Assembly (NCBI GenBank): GCA_020721205.1
Contig: DYNF01000008.1
Span: forward strand, 1-47,130
Origin: Prochloron sp. SulCav_FS08_3_32_3330
GTDB taxonomy: Bacteria; Cyanobacteriota; Cyanobacteriia; Cyanobacteriales; DYNF01
Direction of reading: 5' to 3'
Length of the DNA: 47,130 nucleotides
The notes beneath the pieces are model-generated. The model saw only the letters and a program-made list of their open reading frames with translations. It did no database searches and was not told the origin of the DNA. The position numbers and the translations under genes were made by a program. How positions within the stretch are numbered: the stretch's first letter is position 1; each line of letters begins with the position of its first letter. Positions 3,588-47,130 of the stretch are shown piece by piece.

Positions 3588-3803
3588 AAAAAGTTCGTTG
3601 TTGCGCTTCAGCGCTAAAAAGTTCGTTATTGCACTTCAGCGCTAAAAAGTTCGTTGTTGCGCTTCAGCGCTAAAAAGTTCGTTGTTGCGCTTCAGCGCTA
3701 AAAAGTTCGTTGTTGTGCTTCAGCGCTAAAAAGTTCGTTGTTGTGCTTCAGTGCTAATCTGAATAAAACAAGATTGCAGTGGTGCTAAAGCACAACAACG
3801 AAC
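3588..3803. repeat. Six-copy 28-bp tandem hairpin array with one inverted unit
   Basis: Six head-to-tail 28-bp units start at 3588, 3616, 3644, 3672, 3700 and 3728. Each reads AAAAAGTTCGTTGTTGCG followed by CTTCAGCGCT, with small changes. Each ends in a short hairpin (GCGCT-tc-AGCGC). In unit 6 it has become GTGCT-tc-AGTGC, and unit 2 has a GCAC arm that breaks one pair. After a 26-bp gap an inverted, shortened unit lies at 3782-3803 (GTGCTAAAGCAC then AACAACGAAC). The array fills the gap between cobM and the convergent SGNH hydrolase gene. Confidence 0.93.
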
Positions 3804-16988: not shown

Positions 16989-17255
16989 CTATAATTTAAT
17001 AATTAAATCAGCAACAGTTTGTAAGATAATAATTGCTAAAATAGGGGAAATATCTAAACCGCCTAAAGGGGGAATAAAAGACCGAAAAATATTGAGATAA
17101 GGGTCTGTTACCGGGGCTAAAAAACCCATGATTTGATTTGCCCAGTCTGCGGTTTGAAACCAACTTAGCAAAATACGCACAAAGATTAATATTAAGTAGA
17201 TTTGCAGAAATTTACCAAGACTTTGTGTTAATAATTCCGTTGCCATATTATCCAT
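16989..17255 (-). CDS. YggT/Ycf19-family membrane protein
   Basis: The 88-residue protein has two hydrophobic helices (about 13-33 and 68-86). The family pattern FVRILLSWFQTADWANQIMGFLAPVTDPYLNIFRSFIPPLGGLDISPI is present in full. YggT proteins are small integral membrane proteins; in plastids and cyanobacteria relatives are linked to thylakoid or nucleoid organisation, and their exact role is not settled. MDNMATELL has two possible starts, ATG at 17255 or 17246; the longer is reported. It lies immediately past element D and just downstream of the glycine-zipper gene on the same strand, possibly as one transcript. Confidence 0.85.
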   Translation of the reverse strand: MDNMATELLTQSLGKFLQIYLILIFVRILLSWFQTADWANQIMGFLAPVTDPYLNIFRSFIPPLGGLDISPILAIIILQTVADLIIKL

Positions 17256-21758: not shown

Positions 21759-21821
21759 GTAAGGTGAGCAACTTTTTAATATTTAATAATTGATATTTTT
21801 ATTCTGAAATGTTGCCTATCC
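21759..21821. repeat. GGTGGGCAACT-type mini-element
   Basis: The unit starts GTAAGGTGAGCAACTTTTTA and ends ATTCTGAAATGTTGCCTATC, so its ends are inverted (GGTgaGCAAC against GTTGCctaTC). It is about 63 bp long and very AT-rich inside. Related copies lie at 22088, 22707, 23023, 27960, 41817, 42877 and 43764. Confidence 0.75.
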
Positions 21822-21842
21822 GATCAAATCATTTTTAATAAC

Positions 21843-22031
21843 TGTAGGGGAAACCTGGCATCGTTAATTTATGATACAAAAAAATAACCTAATAAATGTC
21901 ATGCCCAACCCAATATGTAAATTTTATCAATATTAATTATTTTTTTGTTGTTAATTTAATAATGAGACGGGCATGACAAAATATAATTGATCTTCACAAA
22001 TATAATTTAATGATGTCAGGTTTTCCCTACA
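21843..22031. mobile_element. 189-bp MITE-like element, copy 1
   Basis: Terminal inverted repeats of 25 bp (left TGTAGGGGAAACCTGGCATC then GTTAA; right its complement) match at about 22-23 positions. A second, inner inverted pair is GTCATGCCC at 21898-21906 and GGGCATGAC at 21969-21977. The interior is over 80 percent AT and has no gene. A second copy is at 22779-22967 and a solo end at 21725-21747. Confidence 0.82.
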
Positions 22032-22045
22032 TTTTGTTAAAATCT

Positions 22046-22083
22046 AAAAAAAGTCGGGGATTTGTTAAATCCCCGACTTTTAA
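22046..22083. terminator. AGTCGGGGATTT hairpin inside R1
   Basis: Arms AAAAAGTCGGGGATTT and AAATCCCCGACTTTT enclose a four-base loop (GTTA). This is the strongest stem in the region and would stop transcription from either side. It is duplicated in R2 at about 22982-23018. Confidence 0.85.
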
Positions 22084-22087
22084 ATTT

Positions 22088-22150
22088 GTAAAGTGCGTAA
22101 CTTTTTAATATTTAATAATTAATATTTTTATTCTGATATGTTGCTACTCT
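22088..22150. repeat. GGTGGGCAACT-type mini-element at the right edge of R1
   Basis: The unit begins GTAAAGTGCGTAACTTTTTA and ends TGATATGTTGCTACTC. It is a more diverged member of the family at 21759, directly upstream of the antitoxin promoter region, where TATAAT occurs at 22172-22180 within GTTATAATAATG. Confidence 0.7.
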
Positions 22151-22208
22151 ATCAATTATTTAACAATTCTGTTATAATAATGAAGTAGTCAATTTATCAA
22201 TTAAAATT

Positions 22209-22427
22209 ATGACCAATTTATTAACAGAAGCTTTTAATAAAGCACAAACTTTACCAGAGTCTATTCAAAATGAATTAGCTCAACAATTAATTGAAGATAT
22301 TGAAAATGAATTAAAATGGCAAAAAACTTTATCAAAACCAAATTCTTTGTTTGAAAAATTAGCAAAAAAAGCATTAAAAGATTCTAAAGAAGGAAAAACT
22401 AAAGTTATGGGTATTGATGAGTTATGA
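22209..22427 (+). CDS. Antitoxin-like protein of a RelE/ParE-type pair
   Basis: The 72-residue acidic-basic helical protein starts MTNLLTEAFNKAQTLPESIQNELAQ. This helical N-terminal pattern is common in cyanobacterial antitoxins paired with RelE-superfamily toxins. The lysine-rich C-terminal tail (KLAKKALKDSKEGKTK) would be the disordered toxin-binding part. Its stop codon overlaps the start codon of the next gene (ATGA, 22424-22427), so the two are translationally coupled. The pair lies between two near-identical 316-bp repeats. The family assignment comes mainly from the gene partner. Confidence 0.75.
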   Translation: MTNLLTEAFNKAQTLPESIQNELAQQLIEDIENELKWQKTLSKPNSLFEKLAKKALKDSKEGKTKVMGIDEL

Positions 22428-22696
22428 AATCAGAATTAACAGATGAATTTTTAGAATGTTTTGCTAATTTACCCGAAAGAGTTAAACAAACAGCCAGAAA
22501 AAATTATCAACTTTGGAAAGAAAATCCTTATCATCCTAGTTTAGAATTTAAAAAACTAAATACAAAAGAGCCATTATATTCCGTTAGAATTGGAATAGGT
22601 TGGCGTGTAGTAGGAGTTTTAAAAAATCCAGATACAATTATTTGGTTTTGGATTGGTTCACATAATGAATATGATAAATTACTTAAAAATTTCTGA
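22424..22696 (+). CDS. RelE/ParE-superfamily toxin
   Basis: The 90-residue protein has the small RelE fold pattern: an N-terminal helical pair (FLECFANLPERVKQTARKNYQLWKENPYHPSLEFKKL) followed by beta strands YSVRIGIGWRVVGVL and a final IIWFWIGSHNEYDKLL. The helix-strand arrangement, the RIGIGWR strand and the closing histidine-containing strand match the ParE/HigB-like group. RelE relatives cut mRNA on ribosomes, whereas ParE relatives poison gyrase; the target here cannot be assigned. It overlaps the upstream antitoxin by 4 bp. Confidence 0.85.
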   Translation: MKSELTDEFLECFANLPERVKQTARKNYQLWKENPYHPSLEFKKLNTKEPLYSVRIGIGWRVVGVLKNPDTIIWFWIGSHNEYDKLLKNF

Positions 22697-22706
22697 AGAA
22701 ATTGAG

Positions 22707-22757
22707 TAAGGTGCGTAACTTTTTAATATTTAATATTTTTATGCTGATTACCCACCC
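22707..22757. repeat. GGTGGGCAACT-type mini-element, left of R2
   Basis: This shorter copy begins GTAAGGTGCGTAACTTTTTA, has lost part of the interior and ends GATTACCCACCC. It occupies the position in front of R2 that the 21759 copy occupies in front of R1. Confidence 0.7.
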
Positions 22758-22764
22758 GATCAAC

Positions 22765-23080
22765 TCATTTTTAATAACTGTAGGGGAAACCTGGCATCGT
22801 TAATTTATGATACAAAAAAATAACCTAATAAATGTCATGCCCAACCCAATATGTAAATTTTATCAATATTAATTATTTTTTTGTTGTTAATTTAATAATG
22901 AGACGGGCATGACAAAATATAATTGATCTTCACAAATATAATTTAATGATGTCAGGTTTCCCCTACATTTTGTTAAAACCTAAAAAAAGTCGGGGATTTG
23001 TTAAATCCCCGACTTTTAAATCGGTAAAGTGAGTAACTTTTTAATATTTAATAATTAATATTTTTATTCTGATATGTTGC
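22765..23080. repeat. Long direct repeat R2 flanking the toxin-antitoxin pair
   Basis: This is the second copy of the 316-bp segment described at 21829-22144, in the same orientation and about 98 percent identical by eye. It contains MITE copy 2 and the hairpin at about 22982-23018. Confidence 0.93.
22779..22967. mobile_element. 189-bp MITE-like element, copy 2
   Basis: It differs from copy 1 at one base in the right terminal repeat (TTTCCCC here, TTTTCCC there). That change makes the right end a better match to the left, so copy 2 is closer to the likely ancestral element. Confidence 0.82.
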
Positions 23081-23087
23081 CCCCCTA
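23023..23087. repeat. GGTGGGCAACT-type mini-element at the right edge of R2
   Basis: It begins GGTAAAGTGAGTAACTTTTT and ends GATATGTTGCCCCCCTA. It is the R2 counterpart of the 22088 copy and stops about 17 bp before the convergent lipoprotein gene ends. Confidence 0.72.
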
Positions 23088-23104
23088 CAAACTACAAAAA
23101 TAAA

Positions 23105-24537: not shown

Positions 24538-25911
24538 ATGAATATTAAGGAAATGTTACAAATGGTTGATCATTGGGTATTTGCTGAGACGGATCAACAT
24601 TTGGATGATTTACAAAAAACTATTATTGAGGAAATATCTCAGGGTAAAACCTATAAACAAATAGCTGATCTTTATGGTTATCATGAAAATTATGTCGGTG
24701 ATGAAAGTAGAAAGTTATTTAAAATATTATCGGAAAAGTTAGGAGAAAATATTAATAAACATAATTTTTTTTGGACTTTTGAAAGAGTAACAGATCATTC
24801 TCAAGGTTTTAATGTTATTAATGCTAATCTTAATTTATGTCATAATCATCAAACTTCTAATAATAATAATTCTAACTATCATAAACAAAAATCTAATTTT
24901 AAAGATTTAACTTTAGCTCCTCAAATCTTTAAATTTTATAATCGAGAAACTGAACTTAAAAACCTTAATAATTACATATTTAATCAAAATATTAAATTAA
25001 TTTCAGTTTTAGGATTATCGGGTATTGGTAAAACTTATTTAGTTAAAAGATTTGTAGATTTAAACTTAGATAATTTTGAAGTAATTATTTGGAAAAGTTT
25101 AAAATATCCTAAATCTTTAGATTTATTAGTTAATGATTTATTGAAAATTTCTAATGTAGAGACGTACCATGGTACGTCTCTACAAAAAAATGAAACTTAT
25201 CTACAAAAATCTTTAGATGATAAATTAAAACAATTATTTGATCTTTTCACTCAAAAAAAATGTTTAATTATCTTTGATAATATAGAAACTATCTTTATAA
25301 AAGAACAATTTGCTGGACAATATCAAACTAAATTTAAAGATTATCAAGATTTATTTACTATGATTACAGAAAATGATCATCAAAGTAATTTAATTTTGAT
25401 TAGTCAAGAATCTTGTGCCGAAATGCAAAATTTAGATCAAGATTTAACTATAGTTAAATGTTTAGAATTATCAGGTTTAAATGATGTTGATATTTTAACT
25501 AATTTAGGTTTAAAAGATGAGGATAGTTGGTTAAAATTAGTTAAATTATATCAAGGGAATCCCCTTTATTTGAAAAAATATATTTCGCCATTAATTAAAA
25601 ATATTTTTGCGGGTAAAGTTACTGATTTTTTACAAGAAAATACTTTATTTTTAACCGAAGATATGAAATCTCATTTAAGAGAAATATTTGATAGATTATC
25701 ATTAATCGAAAAGCAAATTGTAACAGAATTAAGTAAATTTGATCAACCTATTAGTAGAGAAAATTTAAGACAAAATTTAGATTTATCTTTTATGGATTTA
25801 GTCATGGGATTACAGTCTTTAAAGCAACGATATTTATTAACAAAAATAGAAGAAGAAACAGTTTTATTTAGTTTATCTCCAATCTTAAGAGAATATGTTA
25901 AGAAAAGCTAA
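24538..25911 (+). CDS. STAND-type NTPase with vMAP-like N-terminal helix-turn-helix
   Basis: This 457-residue protein carries an N-terminal domain (about 1-85) of the type called vWA-MoxR-associated N-terminal HTH, with the segment DLQKTIIEEISQGKTYKQIADLYGYHENYVGDESRKL. An NB-ARC-like NTPase follows, with Walker A GLSGIGKTY at 159-167, Walker B KCLIIFDN at 241-248 and a winged-helix part at about 380-455. Relatives known to me normally continue into WD40 or TPR repeats that act as sensor; here the protein ends after the NTPase, so it is either a natural short form or a truncated one. Residues 207-215 are encoded by a perfect palindrome. Confidence 0.82.
   Translation: MNIKEMLQMVDHWVFAETDQHLDDLQKTIIEEISQGKTYKQIADLYGYHENYVGDESRKLFKILSEKLGENINKHNFFWTFERVTDHSQGFNVINANLNLCHNHQTSNNNNSNYHKQKSNFKDLTLAPQIFKFYNRETELKNLNNYIFNQNIKLISVLGLSGIGKTYLVKRFVDLNLDNFEVIIWKSLKYPKSLDLLVNDLLKISNVETYHGTSLQKNETYLQKSLDDKLKQLFDLFTQKKCLIIFDNIETIFIKEQFAGQYQTKFKDYQDLFTMITENDHQSNLILISQESCAEMQNLDQDLTIVKCLELSGLNDVDILTNLGLKDEDSWLKLVKLYQGNPLYLKKYISPLIKNIFAGKVTDFLQENTLFLTEDMKSHLREIFDRLSLIEKQIVTELSKFDQPISRENLRQNLDLSFMDLVMGLQSLKQRYLLTKIEEETVLFSLSPILREYVKKS
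25156..25183. repeat. Perfect 28-bp palindrome inside the STAND coding sequence
   Basis: The left half, GTAGAGACGTACCA, and right half, TGGTACGTCTCTAC, are exact complements. The form TAGAGACGT...ACGTCTCTA is that of a short repeat common in intergenic DNA of many cyanobacteria. Here it sits in frame and encodes about nine residues (VETYHGTSL) between two NTPase motifs. Confidence 0.92.
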
Positions 25912-26623: not shown

Positions 26624-27625
26624 ATGAGATTTATAGATCCCCGTACCGATTTTGCCTTTAAAAAAATATTTGGTTCAGATAAAAGTAAACCAATTTTAAT
26701 TAGTTTTCTTAATGCTTTAGTTTATCAAGGACAAGATAGAATTAAAGATTTAGAAATAATTGATCCCTATCAAGCCGCTAAAATTTTTGGTTTAAAAGAT
26801 ACTTATTTAGATGTTAAAGCTGTCTTAGATGATGATACTAAAGTCATTATAGAAATGCAATATGATTATGTACCCGGTTTTGAACAAAGAATTTTATATA
26901 ATGGGGCAAAAGGCTACGCTAATCAATTAGTTAAAGGGCAAAGATATAGAGAATTAAATTCCGTAATTGCTCTAACAATTACTAATTTTAAGCTGTTTAA
27001 AAATGTGCCTGAAGTAATTACTTATTTTGAATTTAAAGAAAGAAATACTTTGATGGCTTATCCTTTTTCTGCTATTACAATGATTTTTGTGGAATTACCA
27101 AAATTTAAGAAAGAATTAACAGAATTAAATGATATTATAGATAAGTGGCTTTACTTTTTAAGTAAAACGTGGGAATTAGAAGAAATCCCTCAAAAATTAG
27201 AACAAATTGAACCAATTAAAGAAGCTCTTTTAATTGCTAATCGTGCCTCTTTTTCTCCTGAAGAATTAGATACAATTGAGCAACAGGAATTTTATCGTTA
27301 TGATCAACAAAAATTAACGGAATTAAACTTAAAAATACAACAAGAAGCTGACAAAGCTAAACAGGAAGCTGATCAAGCTAAACAAGAAGCTGATCAAGCT
27401 AAACAAGAAGCTGATCAAGCTAAACAAGAATTACTACAAATTCAACAACAAGAAAGGGAGAAAAAAATAACTTTATTGTTGCGTCAATTATCTAAAAAAT
27501 TTGGAGAATTAGATCAACAAATTAAAGATAAAGTTACTCTTTTGTCAACAGAAAAATTAGAAAATTTAGCTGAAATTTTCTTAGATTTTGTGCAGATTTC
27601 TGACTTAATTTCTTGGTTAGAATAA
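26624..27625 (+). CDS. Rpn-family PD-(D/E)XK nuclease with DUF4351-type tail
   Basis: This 333-residue protein starts with the PDDEXK_2/Rpn pattern MRFIDPRTDFAFKKIFG, then LDVKAVLDDDTKVIIEMQ, where Asp and the Glu-x-Gln pair form the nuclease core, and YNGAKGYANQL. Residues about 230-280 are a coiled coil built from four QEAD(K/Q)AK heptads with nearly identical DNA. The end (KKITLLLRQLSKKFGELDQQIKDKV) matches DUF4351. Rpn proteins promote recA-independent recombination in E. coli; this family is often labelled transposase without good reason. A clear AGGAG site precedes the start. Confidence 0.88.
   Translation: MRFIDPRTDFAFKKIFGSDKSKPILISFLNALVYQGQDRIKDLEIIDPYQAAKIFGLKDTYLDVKAVLDDDTKVIIEMQYDYVPGFEQRILYNGAKGYANQLVKGQRYRELNSVIALTITNFKLFKNVPEVITYFEFKERNTLMAYPFSAITMIFVELPKFKKELTELNDIIDKWLYFLSKTWELEEIPQKLEQIEPIKEALLIANRASFSPEELDTIEQQEFYRYDQQKLTELNLKIQQEADKAKQEADQAKQEADQAKQEADQAKQELLQIQQQEREKKITLLLRQLSKKFGELDQQIKDKVTLLSTEKLENLAEIFLDFVQISDLISWLE
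27341..27424. repeat. Four 21-bp tandem units in the Rpn gene
   Basis: Units start at 27341, 27362, 27383 and 27404. The last two are identical and the first two differ by one to three bases. Each encodes the heptad Gln-Glu-Ala-Asp-(Lys/Gln)-Ala-Lys, so copy-number change would lengthen the coiled coil by whole heptads without a frameshift. Confidence 0.92.
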
Positions 27626-41816: not shown

Positions 41817-41883
41817 GTAAGGTGGGCAACTATTTTAAATTTAATTATTAAAAATAAAGTTAAATTTAGTTGCCTACCCTACC
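41817..41883. repeat. GGTGGGCAACT-type mini-element (island copy 1)
   Basis: It starts GTAAGGTGGGCAACTATTTT and ends TTTAGTTGCCTACCCTACC. Together with the preceding CGACTTTTCTATTTTA stretch, about 91 bp are repeated at 42853-42943. Confidence 0.85.
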
Positions 41884-41896
41884 TATTATTTTCACT

Positions 41897-42103
41897 TTAA
41901 GCTATCTGTAAAGATCGGGATTCTGGTAAAGGTTTTCCTATTTGTTCATAACCATAAATTAAATCCTCTAACACTTCTTGAGCATTTTTGAGAGCTTCTT
42001 CATAACTTTCACCATGAGTCCGAGCGTAAGATCCCCACTCAGGCAAAAAAGCGATATATAGCTGATCTTCTTCAGACCATTGAATTAAAATACTATATTT
42101 CAT
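41897..42103 (-). CDS. hicB: HicB-type antitoxin
   Basis: The 68-residue protein has the HicB pattern: MKYSILIQWSEEDQLYIAFLPEW, then ARTHGESYEEALKNAQEVLEDLI. The N-terminal part is the RNase-H-like HicB fold; no C-terminal DNA-binding domain is present, as in short HicB proteins. It would neutralise the HicA toxin encoded just upstream. Start and stop codons of the two genes overlap by 4 bp, which indicates coupling. A mini-element lies 14 bp past its stop codon. Confidence 0.9.
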   Translation of the reverse strand: MKYSILIQWSEEDQLYIAFLPEWGSYARTHGESYEEALKNAQEVLEDLIYGYEQIGKPLPESRSLQIA

Positions 42104-42324
42104 AATTGATCTCCTTGCTCTAATTGTTCAACTTCTTTAATACCTTTCATTATATCTTTTTCTTGGTAAGGTTGAGCATCTTTGTTATCTTTGCCAGATA
42201 AAACTATTGGTTTTGATAAAAGAGGATGAAGCCAATAAGAATGACTGCCTTTTCCTCTTTTTGGTAAAAGATAAAATCCAGCTTTTTGTAACATTTGTTT
42301 TAATTCTCTAATTTTTTTTGGCAT
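42100..42324 (-). CDS. hicA: HicA/YcfA-family mRNA interferase toxin
   Basis: The 74-residue protein has the double-stranded-RNA-binding-like HicA fold pattern: KKIRELKQMLQKAGFYLLPKRGKGSHSYWLHP. The catalytic histidine lies in the conserved GKGSHSYW. HicA toxins cut mRNA and tmRNA without the ribosome. Order here is toxin then antitoxin, which is usual for hicAB. The pair looks intact. Confidence 0.92.
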   Translation of the reverse strand: MPKKIRELKQMLQKAGFYLLPKRGKGSHSYWLHPLLSKPIVLSGKDNKDAQPYQEKDIMKGIKEVEQLEQGDQL

Positions 42325-42362: not shown

Positions 42363-42401
42363 TTATTTAACACTTGGAATACCTAAATCTTTACGTTTCA
42401 T
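42363..42401 (-). pseudogene. Remnant of a second HicA toxin gene
   Basis: An ATG at 42401 overlaps the stop codon of the HicB-like gene (ATGA, 42398-42401), the same coupling as in toxin-antitoxin operons. It opens with Met-Lys-Arg-Lys-Asp-Leu, a typical HicA start, then runs six more codons (GIPSVK) to a stop. The rest of the toxin is missing. Only this 12-codon tag survives. Confidence 0.6.
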
Positions 42402-42610
42402 ATTGCAATTTTTTCCTCTCTGTAATTATTACTAGCGGCAGAAATTGCATCTTGACGATTAAATTCTAAAGCTTCCTGAAGTGTAATTTTTAAACTTTCA
42501 AGTAATTCTTCATAAGATGCTTCCTGACAGTTAACTCCCGGAATTTCTTCGATCCATCCGATCCACCAACCGTTATTTTCTTGTATAAGAGCCGTATATT
42601 GATTAATCAT
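42398..42610 (-). CDS. HicB-family protein, apparently without its toxin
   Basis: The 70-residue protein has the HicB core: YTALIQENNGWWIGWIEEIPGVNCQEASYEELLESLKITLQEAL. It is a different subtype from the 41897 protein, as the two share only the fold pattern. A toxin gene would be expected directly downstream. Only a 12-codon HicA-like tag is there, so the antitoxin may be an orphan protecting against related HicA toxins, or just a decaying gene. Confidence 0.85.
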   Translation of the reverse strand: MINQYTALIQENNGWWIGWIEEIPGVNCQEASYEELLESLKITLQEALEFNRQDAISAASNNYREEKIAI

Positions 42611-42876: not shown

Positions 42877-42943
42877 GTAAGGTGGGCAACTATTTTAAAT
42901 TAAATTATTAAAAATAAAATTAATTTAAGTTACCCACCCTACC
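42877..42943. repeat. GGTGGGCAACT-type mini-element (island copy 2)
   Basis: It starts GTAAGGTGGGCAACTATTTT and ends AAGTTACCCACCCTACC. It is about 85-90 percent identical to island copy 1 by eye and lies 21 bp past the stop codon of the small gene below. Confidence 0.85.
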
Positions 42944-42963
42944 AACTAACTTTTAAGCAAAAT

Positions 42964-43152
42964 TTAATCATTTGATTGTCTTGTTTTAAAAGATGGATCA
43001 ATTTTTTTAGGCGGTAATGTTATAACTTTTCTGCCACTAGCATCTTGTTTTTTTTGCCAATCAGCGAACATAGCATCTAAATCGTAGTTAAATAAGCGAT
43101 CGTGTTCTTCTCGAAATTTATGAATTTCATCTACAATTTCATCATTCCACAT
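42964..43152 (-). CDS. Small partner protein of a PIN-domain toxin
   Basis: The 62-residue acidic-basic protein starts MWNDEIVDEIHKFREEHDRLFNYDLDAMFADWQKKQ. It has no DNA-binding domain that I recognise. Its gene starts 3 bp past the stop codon of the PIN gene, so the two are surely one operon. The position and helix-plus-tail design fit an antitoxin that follows its toxin. IVDEIHKFREEH-type proteins commonly follow PIN genes in cyanobacteria. Confidence 0.7.
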   Translation of the reverse strand: MWNDEIVDEIHKFREEHDRLFNYDLDAMFADWQKKQDASGRKVITLPPKKIDPSFKTRQSND

Positions 43153-43155
43153 AGT

Positions 43156-43629
43156 TTAATCTCCTAATAGTTCATAAGGTGTACAAATTATCGGTAAATT
43201 ATAGCCAAATTCTAAACTAATTTGAGTTAGTTTTTTTTGAATTTGAGCGTTAGCAATATGTTTGCAATTCCATGTTAACAAATAATCTATTTCATGAACA
43301 GTAGCCGCCGCAATATGAACTGAGTCTTCCGATGCTTTAGAGGGCAGATTACTTCTTTTTAGAAACTCTGCTGATAAATTGCGTACAGATTGATTTAATT
43401 CTAATAAAGGTAGTCCGTTGAGTAATTCTAATCTTTTTAAGGCAATTTCTTGATCTCCTCTTGTTACTTCATCAACAACAACCTGTGAAATATAAAGACT
43501 AAAATCATTACGGCGATTTTGCCACCAAGCTTGAGTAATTTCCATATTAGCAGATAGAATCCTATTTTGAGTCTCTCTAGCTGTTAAATAGCCTAAAATA
43601 CTTGTTTCAATATAAATGGTTTCTTTCAC
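43156..43629 (-). CDS. PIN-domain (VapC-like) ribonuclease toxin
   Basis: The 157-residue PIN-fold protein starts with MKETIYIETSILGYLTARE, where the first acidic residue of the site is Glu-8 in place of the usual Asp. SQVVVDEVTRGD near 53 supplies a Glu. The C-terminal KASEDSVHIAAATVHEIDYLLTWNCKHIANA supplies the last acidic pair. PIN toxins are metal-dependent RNases; the acidic cluster looks complete. It heads a two-gene operon with the small protein at 42964. Confidence 0.87.
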   Translation of the reverse strand: MKETIYIETSILGYLTARETQNRILSANMEITQAWWQNRRNDFSLYISQVVVDEVTRGDQEIALKRLELLNGLPLLELNQSVRNLSAEFLKRSNLPSKASEDSVHIAAATVHEIDYLLTWNCKHIANAQIQKKLTQISLEFGYNLPIICTPYELLGD

Positions 43630-43685
43630 AGAATTTGATCAAAATTATGTTTTTAATAAATCTAATTATATCTTATAACATTTAG

Positions 43686-43742
43686 GGTATGCCCTGCGTT
43701 TAATCTTTGATTCTCACCAATCAATTAAATACAGAGCATACC
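43686..43742. repeat. Imperfect inverted repeat upstream of the PIN operon
   Basis: GGTATGCCCTGCGTTTAAT (43686-43704) and ATTAAATACAGAGCATACC (43724-43742) are complementary at 16 of 19 positions, around a 19-bp centre. The site lies 57 bp upstream of the PIN start codon. It may be a small mobile repeat or an operator. Confidence 0.65.
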
Positions 43743-43763
43743 ATACCAATTATTAAATTAGGG

Positions 43764-43828
43764 AAAGGTGGGCAACTATTAAAATTTAATGATTAAAAAT
43801 AAAATTAATTTAAGTTCCCCACCCTACC
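43764..43828. repeat. GGTGGGCAACT-type mini-element (island copy 3)
   Basis: It starts AAAGGTGGGCAACTATTAAA and ends AAGTTCCCCACCCTACC. It abuts the 5'-truncated frame at 43814-44200 and seems to have replaced the start of that gene. Confidence 0.85.
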
Positions 43829-44200
43829 TATAAATTATGGCGTATTTTATCGAATGCGTTAGGAGAAGATGTTAATAGGTCAAATATTCAAGCTACAATT
43901 GAAAGATTAGGATTTGCTAATCAATCTATTACAGGAAATAAAGCACCAGTTATAGGTAGTAATAATATTAATTTTTGTCCTAATTCTGCAAAAAAAGAAA
44001 GTGATCTGATCAACGATAATATAGAAGATAATCAAACAAATTCATCTAATAATAAAAATGGTTATCAAGTTATAATTGAACAAGCACAAAAAAAAGTAAA
44101 ATTAGAGACAGTTCCCAAATTAATAAAAGCAGGTTTAAGTATTGAACAAATTACGGAAATGCTAGAATTAGAATTAGAGGAAGTTCAAAACCTAATCTAA
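43814..44200 (+). pseudogene. 5'-truncated gene, C-terminal tail like Rpn-family proteins
   Basis: There is an open frame of 128 codons with no ATG, GTG or TTG near its 5' end; the first in-frame ATG lies 11 codons before the stop. It reads LWRILSNALGEDVNRSNIQA and ATIERLGFANQSITGNKAPV near the start and KLETVPKLIKAGLSIEQITE near the end. The last part is the helical tail common in Rpn-type nucleases. I do not recognise the front part. A mini-element occupies the position of the lost 5' end. A degraded copy of the last 110 bp lies at 45115-45230. Confidence 0.7.
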
Positions 44201-44261
44201 TCATCTTTATTTTGTGTTAAACTATTGTCAATCATTAATTAATCTTAACTAATCTAAATTT

Positions 44262-44519
44262 ATGAATATTATTCTTAACTCCCGACTAGAAAATTTAATT
44301 CAACAACAAATCACTTCTGGAAAATATAACAATATTAATGATGTGATTGAAGATGCTTTAACTTTGTTAGAAAAACGCCATCAATATGATCAATGGGTTA
44401 AAGAAATTGGCGATAAAATTGATATTGCGGCTCAACAATTAGATCAAGGTGAAGGCATAAATAGCGATTTTGCGATTAAACAACTTCGCCAAAATTTACG
44501 TCAAACTAATGATAATTAA
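44262..44519 (+). CDS. parD: ParD-type ribbon-helix-helix antitoxin
   Basis: The 85-residue protein begins MNIILNSRLENLIQQQITSGKYNNINDVIEDALTLLEKR. This is the ribbon-helix-helix pattern of ParD antitoxins, where the beta strand at 2-6 contacts DNA and helices dimerise. The tail (QLDQGEGINSDFAIKQLRQNLRQ) would bind the toxin. It precedes the ParE gene by 8 bp and probably represses their promoter. Confidence 0.9.
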   Translation: MNIILNSRLENLIQQQITSGKYNNINDVIEDALTLLEKRHQYDQWVKEIGDKIDIAAQQLDQGEGINSDFAIKQLRQNLRQTNDN

Positions 44520-44527
44520 GGAAAATA

Positions 44528-44827
44528 ATGACTCAATATATTATTGCACCAGAAGCAATACAAGACCTCAAAGAAATTACACATTATTTGGCTAATTTTA
44601 ATCTTGATACTTCTGAAAATTTCCTTAACCAATTTGAAACAAAATGTCGTTATTTAGTACAGTTTCCCAAAATTGGACGCAGTTATAAGCAAATTCGCTC
44701 TTATTTAAGAGGTTTACCTTTTAATGGTTATATTATCTTTTATCGTCTTGGTAATGATGTTATCGAAATTATGAGAGTTGTTAAAGGTAATCGTGATTTA
44801 GAAGCTCTTTTTGCTGATTATAATTAA
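44528..44827 (+). CDS. parE: ParE/RelE-superfamily toxin
   Basis: The 99-residue protein has the ParE pattern: YIIAPEAIQDLKEITHYLANFNLDTSENFLNQFETKC, then FPKIGRSYKQIRSYLRGLPFNGYIIFYRLGNDVIEIMRVVKGNRDLEALF. The RVVKGNRDL strand is typical for the family. Known ParE toxins inhibit gyrase. It forms an intact pair with the upstream ParD. Confidence 0.92.
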   Translation: MTQYIIAPEAIQDLKEITHYLANFNLDTSENFLNQFETKCRYLVQFPKIGRSYKQIRSYLRGLPFNGYIIFYRLGNDVIEIMRVVKGNRDLEALFADYN

Positions 44828-44889
44828 TGTTAGTTGATGATCTGAATCAAGAAATATCTTTATAACTCTAGTTAATATAGTGAAAAATC

Positions 44890-45096
44890 ATGAAAATTAA
44901 TCTTAATAATGATCAACAAATTATTGAACAAGTTTTTAAAGTTTTAATTGAAAACTTAGATACTTCTACTGTTATGCGTTTTTGGAAAATTTGTAATTTA
45001 GGAAATAGTGATTATTGTCAGATCAAAGATCAATTATTTAAAGATGAAACTGTTGATAGTCTTTATGAGAAAATTAAAGCACAAGAAAATAGTTAA
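44890..45096 (+). CDS. Small protein of unknown function next to parDE
   Basis: The 68-residue protein (MKINLNNDQQIIEQVFKVLIENLD, then TSTVMRFWKICNLGNSDYCQ) is mixed alpha-beta, with two cysteines. Short proteins with an RFWKICNLGNSDY-type motif are familiar to me only as hypothetical proteins near toxin-antitoxin genes in cyanobacteria. It has an ATG start and clean termination, and lies 62 bp after parE on the same strand. No function proposed. Confidence 0.55.
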   Translation: MKINLNNDQQIIEQVFKVLIENLDTSTVMRFWKICNLGNSDYCQIKDQLFKDETVDSLYEKIKAQENS

Positions 45097-45114
45097 CATT
45101 AGCGAATGGAAAAA

Positions 45115-45230
45115 CGAAAAAAGTAAAATTAGACACAGTTTCTAAATTAATAAAAGCAGGTTTAAGTATTGAACAAATTGCCGAAATGTTAGAATTAGAA
45201 TGAGGAGAAGTACAAACTACAATAAAATAA
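45115..45230 (+). pseudogene. Degraded duplicate of the Rpn-like tail
   Basis: About 110 bp repeat the end of the 43814-44200 frame (KKVKLDTVSKLIKAGLSIEQ, then IAEMLELE). A premature TGA replaces one codon, and the rest of the frame (GEVQTTIK) continues after it. With the first copy it brackets parD, parE and the 68-residue gene as direct repeats. Confidence 0.75.
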
Positions 45231-47030: not shown

Positions 47031-47123
47031 GTTTGTTGTTGTGCTTTAGCACTATTTCTATTAATTTTGTGTGCTGAAGCACAACAACGAACATTTTTTG
47101 TGTGCTGAAGCACAACAACGAAC
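47031..47123. repeat. AACGAAC-type hairpin repeats at the window end
   Basis: One unit lies forward (GTTTGTTGTTGTGCTTTAGC then AC, 47031-47052). Two lie in reverse (GTGCTGAAGCACAACAACGA then AC) at 47071-47092 and 47102-47123. They are the same family as the array at 3588-3803 and probably act as terminator of the ABC-F gene. Confidence 0.88.
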
Positions 47124-47130
47124 ATTTTTT

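What the first reader, a model, noticed from the sequence alone, without database searches (positions are those of the whole stretch)
43814..45230. Direct repeat of a broken Rpn-like tail brackets parDE
A 5'-truncated frame (43814-44200) ends in a helical tail that is repeated, with a stop mutation, at 45115-45230. Between the copies lie parD, parE and one small gene. As at 22 kb, a toxin-antitoxin pair is framed by direct repeats, although here the repeats are gene fragments. This suggests insertion of the pair into an Rpn-like gene with duplication of its end, or a shared way of capturing such pairs.
Basis: partly seen in the sequence, partly recalled or inferred. Interest (0 to 1): 0.52.

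Follow-up and report, generated by a model that had tools for sequence, protein, structure and literature searches.

The report
Gene debris beside palindrome-bracketed toxin–antitoxin array
The repeat around the parDE toxin–antitoxin pair is real but is leftover gene ends, while a different, short palindromic repeat does bracket many toxin–antitoxin pairs one by one in this cyanobacterium.

Summary
In detail: 44090-44189 and 45117-45216 are 90% identical over 100 nt, with parD, parE and a 68-aa ORF between. The interpretation mostly fails. The broken frame is not an Rpn nuclease but the 3' two-thirds of a 165-220-aa cyanobacterial gene: an HTH head (shared with this genome's STAND ATPases) plus an Rpn-type tail, intact elsewhere in this genome and in other genera. 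Relatives carry one tail each. The same genome has a duplicated Rpn gene end with no TA pair beside it. Both copies are dead. Best reading: gene debris; insertion with end duplication cannot be excluded without close relatives.

The head is cut exactly at a ~65-bp palindrome closing a two-module TA array (41.8-43.8 kb). This GTAG-REP-like palindrome, also at 22 kb, has at least 78 genomic places. Of 22 intervals of 0.4-1.3 kb between neighbouring copies, 15 hold a toxin family; of 44 sides of isolated copies, 6 hold any TA family. Neighbouring copies resemble each other (0.86 vs 0.70; 0 of 2000 permutations). The shared framing is the palindrome, not the tail.

The parts
43829..44200 (+). 5'-truncated pseudogene: HTH head remnant + Rpn-type tail (about 56 N-terminal residues missing, no start codon)
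   Evidence: 61% identical to the intact 183-aa frame at G000:C123; N-half not found in 36-47 kb
44090..44189 (+). tail repeat, copy 1
   Evidence: 100 nt, 90%; homologous tail matches TIGR01784 C-terminus
45117..45216 (+). tail repeat, copy 2: orphan remnant with in-frame TGA and no start codon
44262..44519 (+). parD antitoxin gene (85 aa)
44528..44827 (+). parE toxin gene (99 aa)
44890..45096 (+). 68-aa ORF of unknown function; relatives on cyanobacterial plasmids beside PIN, RelE/ParE or restriction genes
43763..43827 (.). palindromic repeat (PAL), right end of the TA array; the gene truncation point abuts it
42877..42942 (.). PAL, middle of the array
41817..41882 (.). PAL, left end of the array
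43156..43629 (-). PIN-domain toxin candidate (157 aa)
   Evidence: PF01850, 22.6 bits, just under cut-off 23.6; paralogue at C123 29.6 bits
42964..43152 (-). 62-aa partner ORF of the PIN gene (antitoxin candidate, no family match)
   Evidence: same pair at C123
41897..42324 (-). HicB-like (41897-42103) and HicA (42100-42324) pair
   Evidence: HicA 37.4 bits over cut-off 27; HicB-like 16.1 bits, below cut-off
42398..42610 (-). DUF1902/UPF0150-like small ORF (HicB-type, unpaired)
   Evidence: 21.5 bits, just under cut-off 22
22088..22152 (.). PAL left of the 22-kb TA pair (another at 21759-21824)
23024..23088 (.). PAL right of the 22-kb TA pair
22209..22696 (+). 72-aa ORF and ParE_like toxin (90 aa) between the 22-kb palindromes

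Best explanation
The two tails are debris of one gene family in a hypervariable, TA-rich stretch. Shown: copy 1 is the remaining 3' part of an HTH + Rpn-tail gene whose 5' third is gone exactly up to the edge of a palindromic REP-like repeat (PAL) that closes a HicBA + PIN toxin-antitoxin array; copy 2 is an orphan 3' end with only amino-acid-changing or stop changes. Inferred: an older local duplication of the gene (whole, then decayed, or of its 3' end only) gave the two tails; parDE and the 68-aa ORF lie between them because TA pairs accumulate here; a deletion from the PAL edge later removed the start of copy 1. What frames TA pairs one by one in this genome is the PAL (GTAG-REP dimer type, usually sitting just after stop codons), so the TA arrays probably grew by recombination or insertion at PAL sites with the PAL duplicated on the other side (mechanism inferred).
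For: Intact HTH+tail genes at G000:C123 (183 aa), C202 and C207 and in other genomes. One tail in each of 13 relative loci, none with a second (the 14th locus has the head only). Gene homology begins at 43829, the base after the PAL. At C123 the same PAL / PIN pair / PAL block lies upstream of the intact gene, with ~0.5 kb that the window lacks. Polarised by C123, copy 1 gained 4 changes (3 synonymous), copy 2 gained 5 (none synonymous, one a stop), 1 ambiguous. A partial duplication of an Rpn gene end with no TA pair lies at C181, 95-99% identical. Tails at 14 places in the genome, 5 in short frames. PAL: 15 of 22 PAL-PAL intervals hold a Pfam toxin family against 6 of 44 control sides with any TA family; Fisher p 1.4e-5. 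Neighbouring PALs alike 0.856 vs 0.698 permuted, 0 of 2000.
Against: The two tails are each other's closest relatives by far and flank a TA pair neatly, which an insertion model predicts. Copy 2 dead while copy 1 stayed selected is also what an insertion that replaces the gene end would give. Only 9 polarised changes. No close relative was available, so neither the duplication nor the deletion is dated or ordered. Relatives of the HTH+tail gene also often lie next to TA pairs, so the neighbourhood is not random.
Confidence: 0.58

Rival explanations
1. One reading: DNA carrying parDE, the 68-aa ORF and a gene tail entered at the 3' end of the HTH+tail gene, for example by single crossover in the ~100-nt tail, leaving the old tail as a dead copy on the far side.
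For: Tail copies are each other's best match in the genome; copy 2 shows only damaging changes and copy 1 mostly silent ones; relatives have one tail; at 22 kb a TA pair lies between 97% identical 300-nt repeats, as a single crossover would leave.
Against: No integrase or transposase among the ORFs between the repeats; copies already 10% diverged; a gene-end duplication exists without TA; the parDE paralogue at C33 shows no tail among the ORFs mapped beside it; no empty site seen.
Confidence: 0.27
2. Two independent HTH+tail paralogues stood on either side of a TA pair and both decayed; gene conversion kept the tails alike.
For: The gene family has several members here and often neighbours TA pairs in other genera.
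Against: Tails match 90% while the next paralogue matches 77%; no trace of a head before copy 2.
Confidence: 0.12
3. Copy 2 is a working solitary antitoxin, like the RpnS C-terminal product of rpn genes.
For: The tail matches the Rpn C-terminus, and RpnS is a C-terminal antitoxin (PMC10327210: abstract start in a search listing, passages, and section 4 read).
Against: In-frame TGA, no start codon in frame, no synonymous change since the split.
Confidence: 0.03

Closest known systems
Rpn (recombination-promoting nuclease / COG5464, TIGR01784) and its C-terminal RpnS
   Same: The 35-aa tail; arrays of rpn genes by tandem direct duplication are described (PMC10327210, section 4 read).
   Different: The window gene has an HTH head and no PD-(D/E)XK nuclease domain was found in its intact relatives.
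GTAG-tagged REP palindromes / REPINs (PMC3733652 and PMC3116915, passages read)
   Same: GTAG at both ends, extragenic, close after stop codons, mostly between tandem or convergent genes; GTAG REPs are reported in cyanobacteria.
   Different: Here neighbouring copies bracket single TA pairs and resemble each other; PMC3733652 holds words beginning with 'toxin' 0 times in its main text.
Integron gene-cassette arrays / CALIN
   Same: Arrays of one- or two-gene cassettes separated by imperfect palindromes; TA pairs common (recalled).
   Different: Palindrome ends GGGCAAC/GTTGCCC do not fit the attC core consensus (recalled); orientation of genes is mixed; integrase not looked for.
ParDE type II toxin-antitoxin
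   Same: Both proteins pass Pfam cut-offs.
   Different: Nothing unusual in the pair itself.

Membership tests
Rpn nuclease family | PD-(D/E)XK nuclease domain (PF12784/COG5464) | tested here: not met
   Two intact relatives of the broken gene show only HTH/DUF433-type and other weak matches; an Rpn-type gene in the window, 26624-27625, does match PF12784
Rpn nuclease family | Rpn C-terminal tail | tested here: met
   TIGR01784 positions 227-272 of 273, E 4e-7 in the intact C123 relative, though the whole-protein score (30.1) is below cut-off (52.1)
ParDE type II TA | ParD and ParE domains, adjacent genes | tested here: met
   PF03693 23.5 bits and PF05016 61 bits, both over cut-off; ORFs 8 nt apart
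Integrative element with duplicated attachment site | integrase or transposase inside the repeats | tested here: not met
   only parD, parE and a 68-aa ORF without family match
Integrative element with duplicated attachment site | empty site in a close relative | not testable with these tools
   no same-genus or same-family genome among those searched; records near the window may be left out of genome contigs
GTAG REP / REPIN | palindrome with GTAG foot, many copies, extragenic at gene 3' ends | tested here: met
   consensus GTAGGGTGGGCAAC...GTTGCCCACCTTAC; 89% of stem cells paired vs at most 47% for slid versions; 78 merged places, a lower bound; 0 of 67 inside an ORF, median 24 nt after a stop codon, tandem 33 / convergent 20 / divergent 8
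GTAG REP / REPIN | cognate RAYT transposase gene flanked by the palindrome | tested here: inconclusive
   Own genome: two RAYT-like genes (C135 over cut-off, C143 below) carry other palindromes. In G083 a broken RAYT frame (89.0 and 74.8 bits, cut-off 80) lies between PAL-like copies
Integron / CALIN | attC core sites RYYYAAC ... GTTRRRY (recalled motif) | tested here: not met
   PAL ends read GGGCAAC ... GTTGCCC, compared by eye
Integron / CALIN | IntI integrase in the genome | not tested
   no search made

The most novel reading that the evidence does not exclude
Toxin-antitoxin modules in this cyanobacterium, and probably in related families, are gained and exchanged as single-module cassettes bounded by GTAG REP dimers: each gain duplicates the palindrome, building arrays (seven consecutive intervals at G000:C92) without an integrase, through REP/RAYT activity or recombination between palindromes.
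Probability: 0.3. Interest if true: 0.7.

Novelty: new variant of a known kind. Interest (0 to 1): 0.42.

Why it matters
The tail repeat itself is ordinary. The palindrome-bracketed TA arrays matter more: how small TA modules move and cluster is an open question, and a repeat that brackets them one at a time gives a testable boundary (empty palindrome sites, excision products). It also shows that 'TA pair between direct repeats' can arise in unrelated ways side by side in one genome.

Tried and rejected
Tail as part of a longer duplicated block: rejected, downstream flanks are no more alike than shuffles. 5' half of the gene left upstream of the TA array: not found. PAL-like element around parDE: none (best E 1.5). 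Orthologous locus in close relatives: not obtainable; genome contigs gave only Tychonema at 45%, and the relatives searched are all labelled 'same order' with other family labels. Exact PAL core pattern in 291 genomes of the order: 8 with a match, this genome among them or 7-8 others with one match each; most of their interiors do not look like this family (by eye), G006 being the likely exception. RAYT as cognate transposase in the own genome: two RAYT-like genes and the IS200-type genes carry no PAL. PDB: one good match for the tail, 8vd6 'CAP REPEAT', not followed. PADLOC: nothing for the genes of the finding. Literature on TA with REP or MITE in cyanobacteria: searches listed nothing that describes TA modules bracketed by REPs; of these I read listings only, plus passages of four papers and one section. 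Structure prediction was not used; it would not decide between the models.

Limits of the PAL counts: PALs were sought with a model seeded on copies that flank TA pairs, so the sub-family may be biased; only 150 of 22284 first-look candidates were scored. Two of the 15 counted toxin matches (PIN at C140 and at 42877-43763) are below Pfam's cut-off. The test count is of toxin families and the control count of any TA family, a difference in favour of the control. Ten of the 79 listed places lay outside the stretches I held and were dropped from the similarity test (69 of 79 used). Seven of 22 intervals had no toxin family: C67 three times, C86, and C92 at 13499, 14821 and 15546 (the last with DUF433 only). 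Held-out pairs first seen: 3 of 5 held a TA pair (toxin families). Outside this genome, NCBIfam toxin matches fell in 1 of 3 intervals of G006 and 2 of 8 of G083 (one of them, VapC, below cut-off), by eye about two more; not every ORF of these intervals was scanned; those stretches were chosen from the best PAL hits only.

Full report
THE REPEAT. The window is bases 1-47130 of a 67-kb contig (G000:C191) of a 4.73-Mb draft genome. Two 100-nt stretches, 44090-44189 and 45117-45216, are 90% identical. In the whole genome the next matches are 77% over 95 nt (C123), 88% over 41 nt (C92) and 92% over 26 nt (C28). Between them lie parD (44262-44519), parE (44528-44827) and a 68-aa ORF (44890-45096). 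ParD and ParE pass their Pfam cut-offs. After the copies the sequences do not resemble each other beyond shuffles.

WHAT THE BROKEN FRAME IS. The frame 43829-44200 has 61% identity with an intact 183-aa frame at G000:C123. Further members in this genome are at C202 (173 aa) and C207 (162 aa). Of 60 relatives searched, 13 have a match to the frame at E 1e-8 or better; the stretches read from them and Tychonema show a family of about 165-220 aa with an HTH-type head and the tail at its end. Some matches (L050, L051, L054, L055) cover the head only. The head recurs in many ~450-485-aa frames of this genome; one of them, at 24538-25911 in the window, matches ATPase_2, AAA_22 and NB-ARC. The tail of the C123 protein matches the last residues of the Rpn model TIGR01784 (227-272 of 273), and tails occur at 14 places in the genome, several at the ends of ~270-300-aa frames. 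So 'Rpn-like tail' is right and 'Rpn-like gene' is not. About 56 N-terminal residues are missing, and no trace of them was found between 36 and 47 kb.

WHERE IT WAS CUT. DNA similarity to the C123 gene starts at 43829, the base after a palindromic repeat at about 43765-43828. At C123 the same order is found: palindrome, PIN gene with a small partner, palindrome, then about 0.5 kb, then the intact gene. The window lacks that 0.5 kb and the gene's start. The simplest reading is a deletion ending at the palindrome (inference).

HISTORY OF THE TWO TAILS. With C123 as outgroup, 4 changes fall on copy 1 (3 silent, 1 replacing), 5 on copy 2 (all replacing or stop), 1 is ambiguous. Neither copy gives an ORF of 35 aa or more with a start codon in its frame. 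So copy 2 looks dead since the split and copy 1 looks as if it had worked for most of that time; the numbers are small. In 13 relative loci with a tail there is one tail each. At C181 in the same genome an Rpn gene end is duplicated about 320 nt downstream, 95-99% identical, with no TA pair. For rpn genes, arrays are described as tandem direct duplications without target-site duplications (PMC10327210, section 4). A duplicated gene end thus needs no TA pair. Insertion of parDE with end duplication remains possible and would leave the same picture; only close relatives can decide, and none were available.

THE PALINDROME (PAL). The repeat at the cut belongs to a family of ~65-bp palindromes with GTAG at both ends. 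Its 16-bp stem pairs in 89% of cells against 37-47% when slid by 1-3 columns. A covariance model finds 143 strand matches in this genome, which I reduced to 79 places (78 after merging), a lower bound. None of 67 with context lies inside an ORF; the median distance after a stop codon is 24 nt; neighbours are tandem in 33, convergent in 20 and divergent in 8 cases. This fits GTAG-tagged REPs and REPINs (PMC3733652, PMC3116915; passages read). Two RAYT-like genes of this genome carry other palindromes, but in G083 a broken RAYT frame lies between PAL-like copies.

PAL AND TA PAIRS. Consecutive PALs on one contig are strongly bimodal in spacing: 22 of 39 gaps are 470-1098 nt, the rest being one of 264 and 16 above 1.7 kb. 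Each of those 22 intervals holds one to three ORFs of 45 aa or more; 15 hold a Pfam toxin family: PIN 5, HicA 3, PemK/MazF 2, ParE or ParE_like 2, BrnT, TumE, DUF5615. Of 44 flanking 900-nt sides of 22 isolated PALs, 6 hold a TA family; Fisher p = 1.4e-5. Of 5 pairs first seen in the genome-wide search, 3 held a TA pair. Contig C92 carries seven consecutive intervals of about 0.5-1.2 kb (one palindrome, at 17009, from nhmmer only), all with small TA-like gene sets by eye, though two of the five scored by the model have no family match and one has DUF433 only. Neighbouring PALs are 0.856 identical on average against 0.698 in permutations, 0 of 2000 reaching it; they are reciprocal best matches in 5 of 22 pairs. 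At 22 kb the TA pair is likewise between PALs, flanked by a 300-nt, 97% direct repeat. G006 and G083, of other families, also have such intervals, less regularly.

CONCLUSION. The tail repeat around parDE is most likely gene debris. The PAL arrays are a new variant of a known kind (REP dimers) whose link with TA modules I did not find described in the searches listed. Whether PALs move TA modules, or merely collect beside them, is open.

Noticed in passing
G000:C92 12831-18259 (L080 4332-9760): Seven consecutive small-gene intervals, most recognisable TA pairs, each separated by the ~65-bp palindrome (one of the palindromes seen by nhmmer only).
   Followed up: partly
window 21759-23088: Order PAL - about 0.26 kb - PAL - ParE_like pair - the same stretch again - PAL; the 300-nt direct repeat is 97% identical, as a single crossover or tandem event would leave.
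   Followed up: partly
window 44890-45096: 68-aa ORF with relatives (75-78% DNA identity) on Cyanobacterium, Planktothrix and Gloeothece plasmids, beside a PIN gene, a RelE/ParE toxin, DUF4926 or type I restriction genes; no family match.
   Followed up: partly
L040-L056: Intact HTH+Rpn-tail genes often stand next to TA pairs (by eye: DUF1778-GNAT, MNT-HEPN, HicAB, VapBC) and, in L048/L049, overlap an Rpn-type gene (by eye).
   Followed up: partly
G000:C181 8454-8904 (L013, L089): Rpn gene with its 3' end duplicated about 320 nt downstream, 95-99% identical.
   Followed up: partly
window 3588-3757 and 47065-47126: Tandem arrays of a short unit (GTTGTTGTGCTTCAGC type) resembling by eye the palindromes that flank the RAYT gene at G000:C135.
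   Followed up: no
G000, many contigs; window 24538-25911: More than a dozen ~450-485-aa STAND-type ATPase frames share the HTH head with the broken gene.
   Followed up: no
L153 1995-2572 (G083:C1): Broken REP-associated tyrosine transposase frame between PAL-like palindromes, in a region with VapBC and RelE-like pairs.
   Followed up: partly
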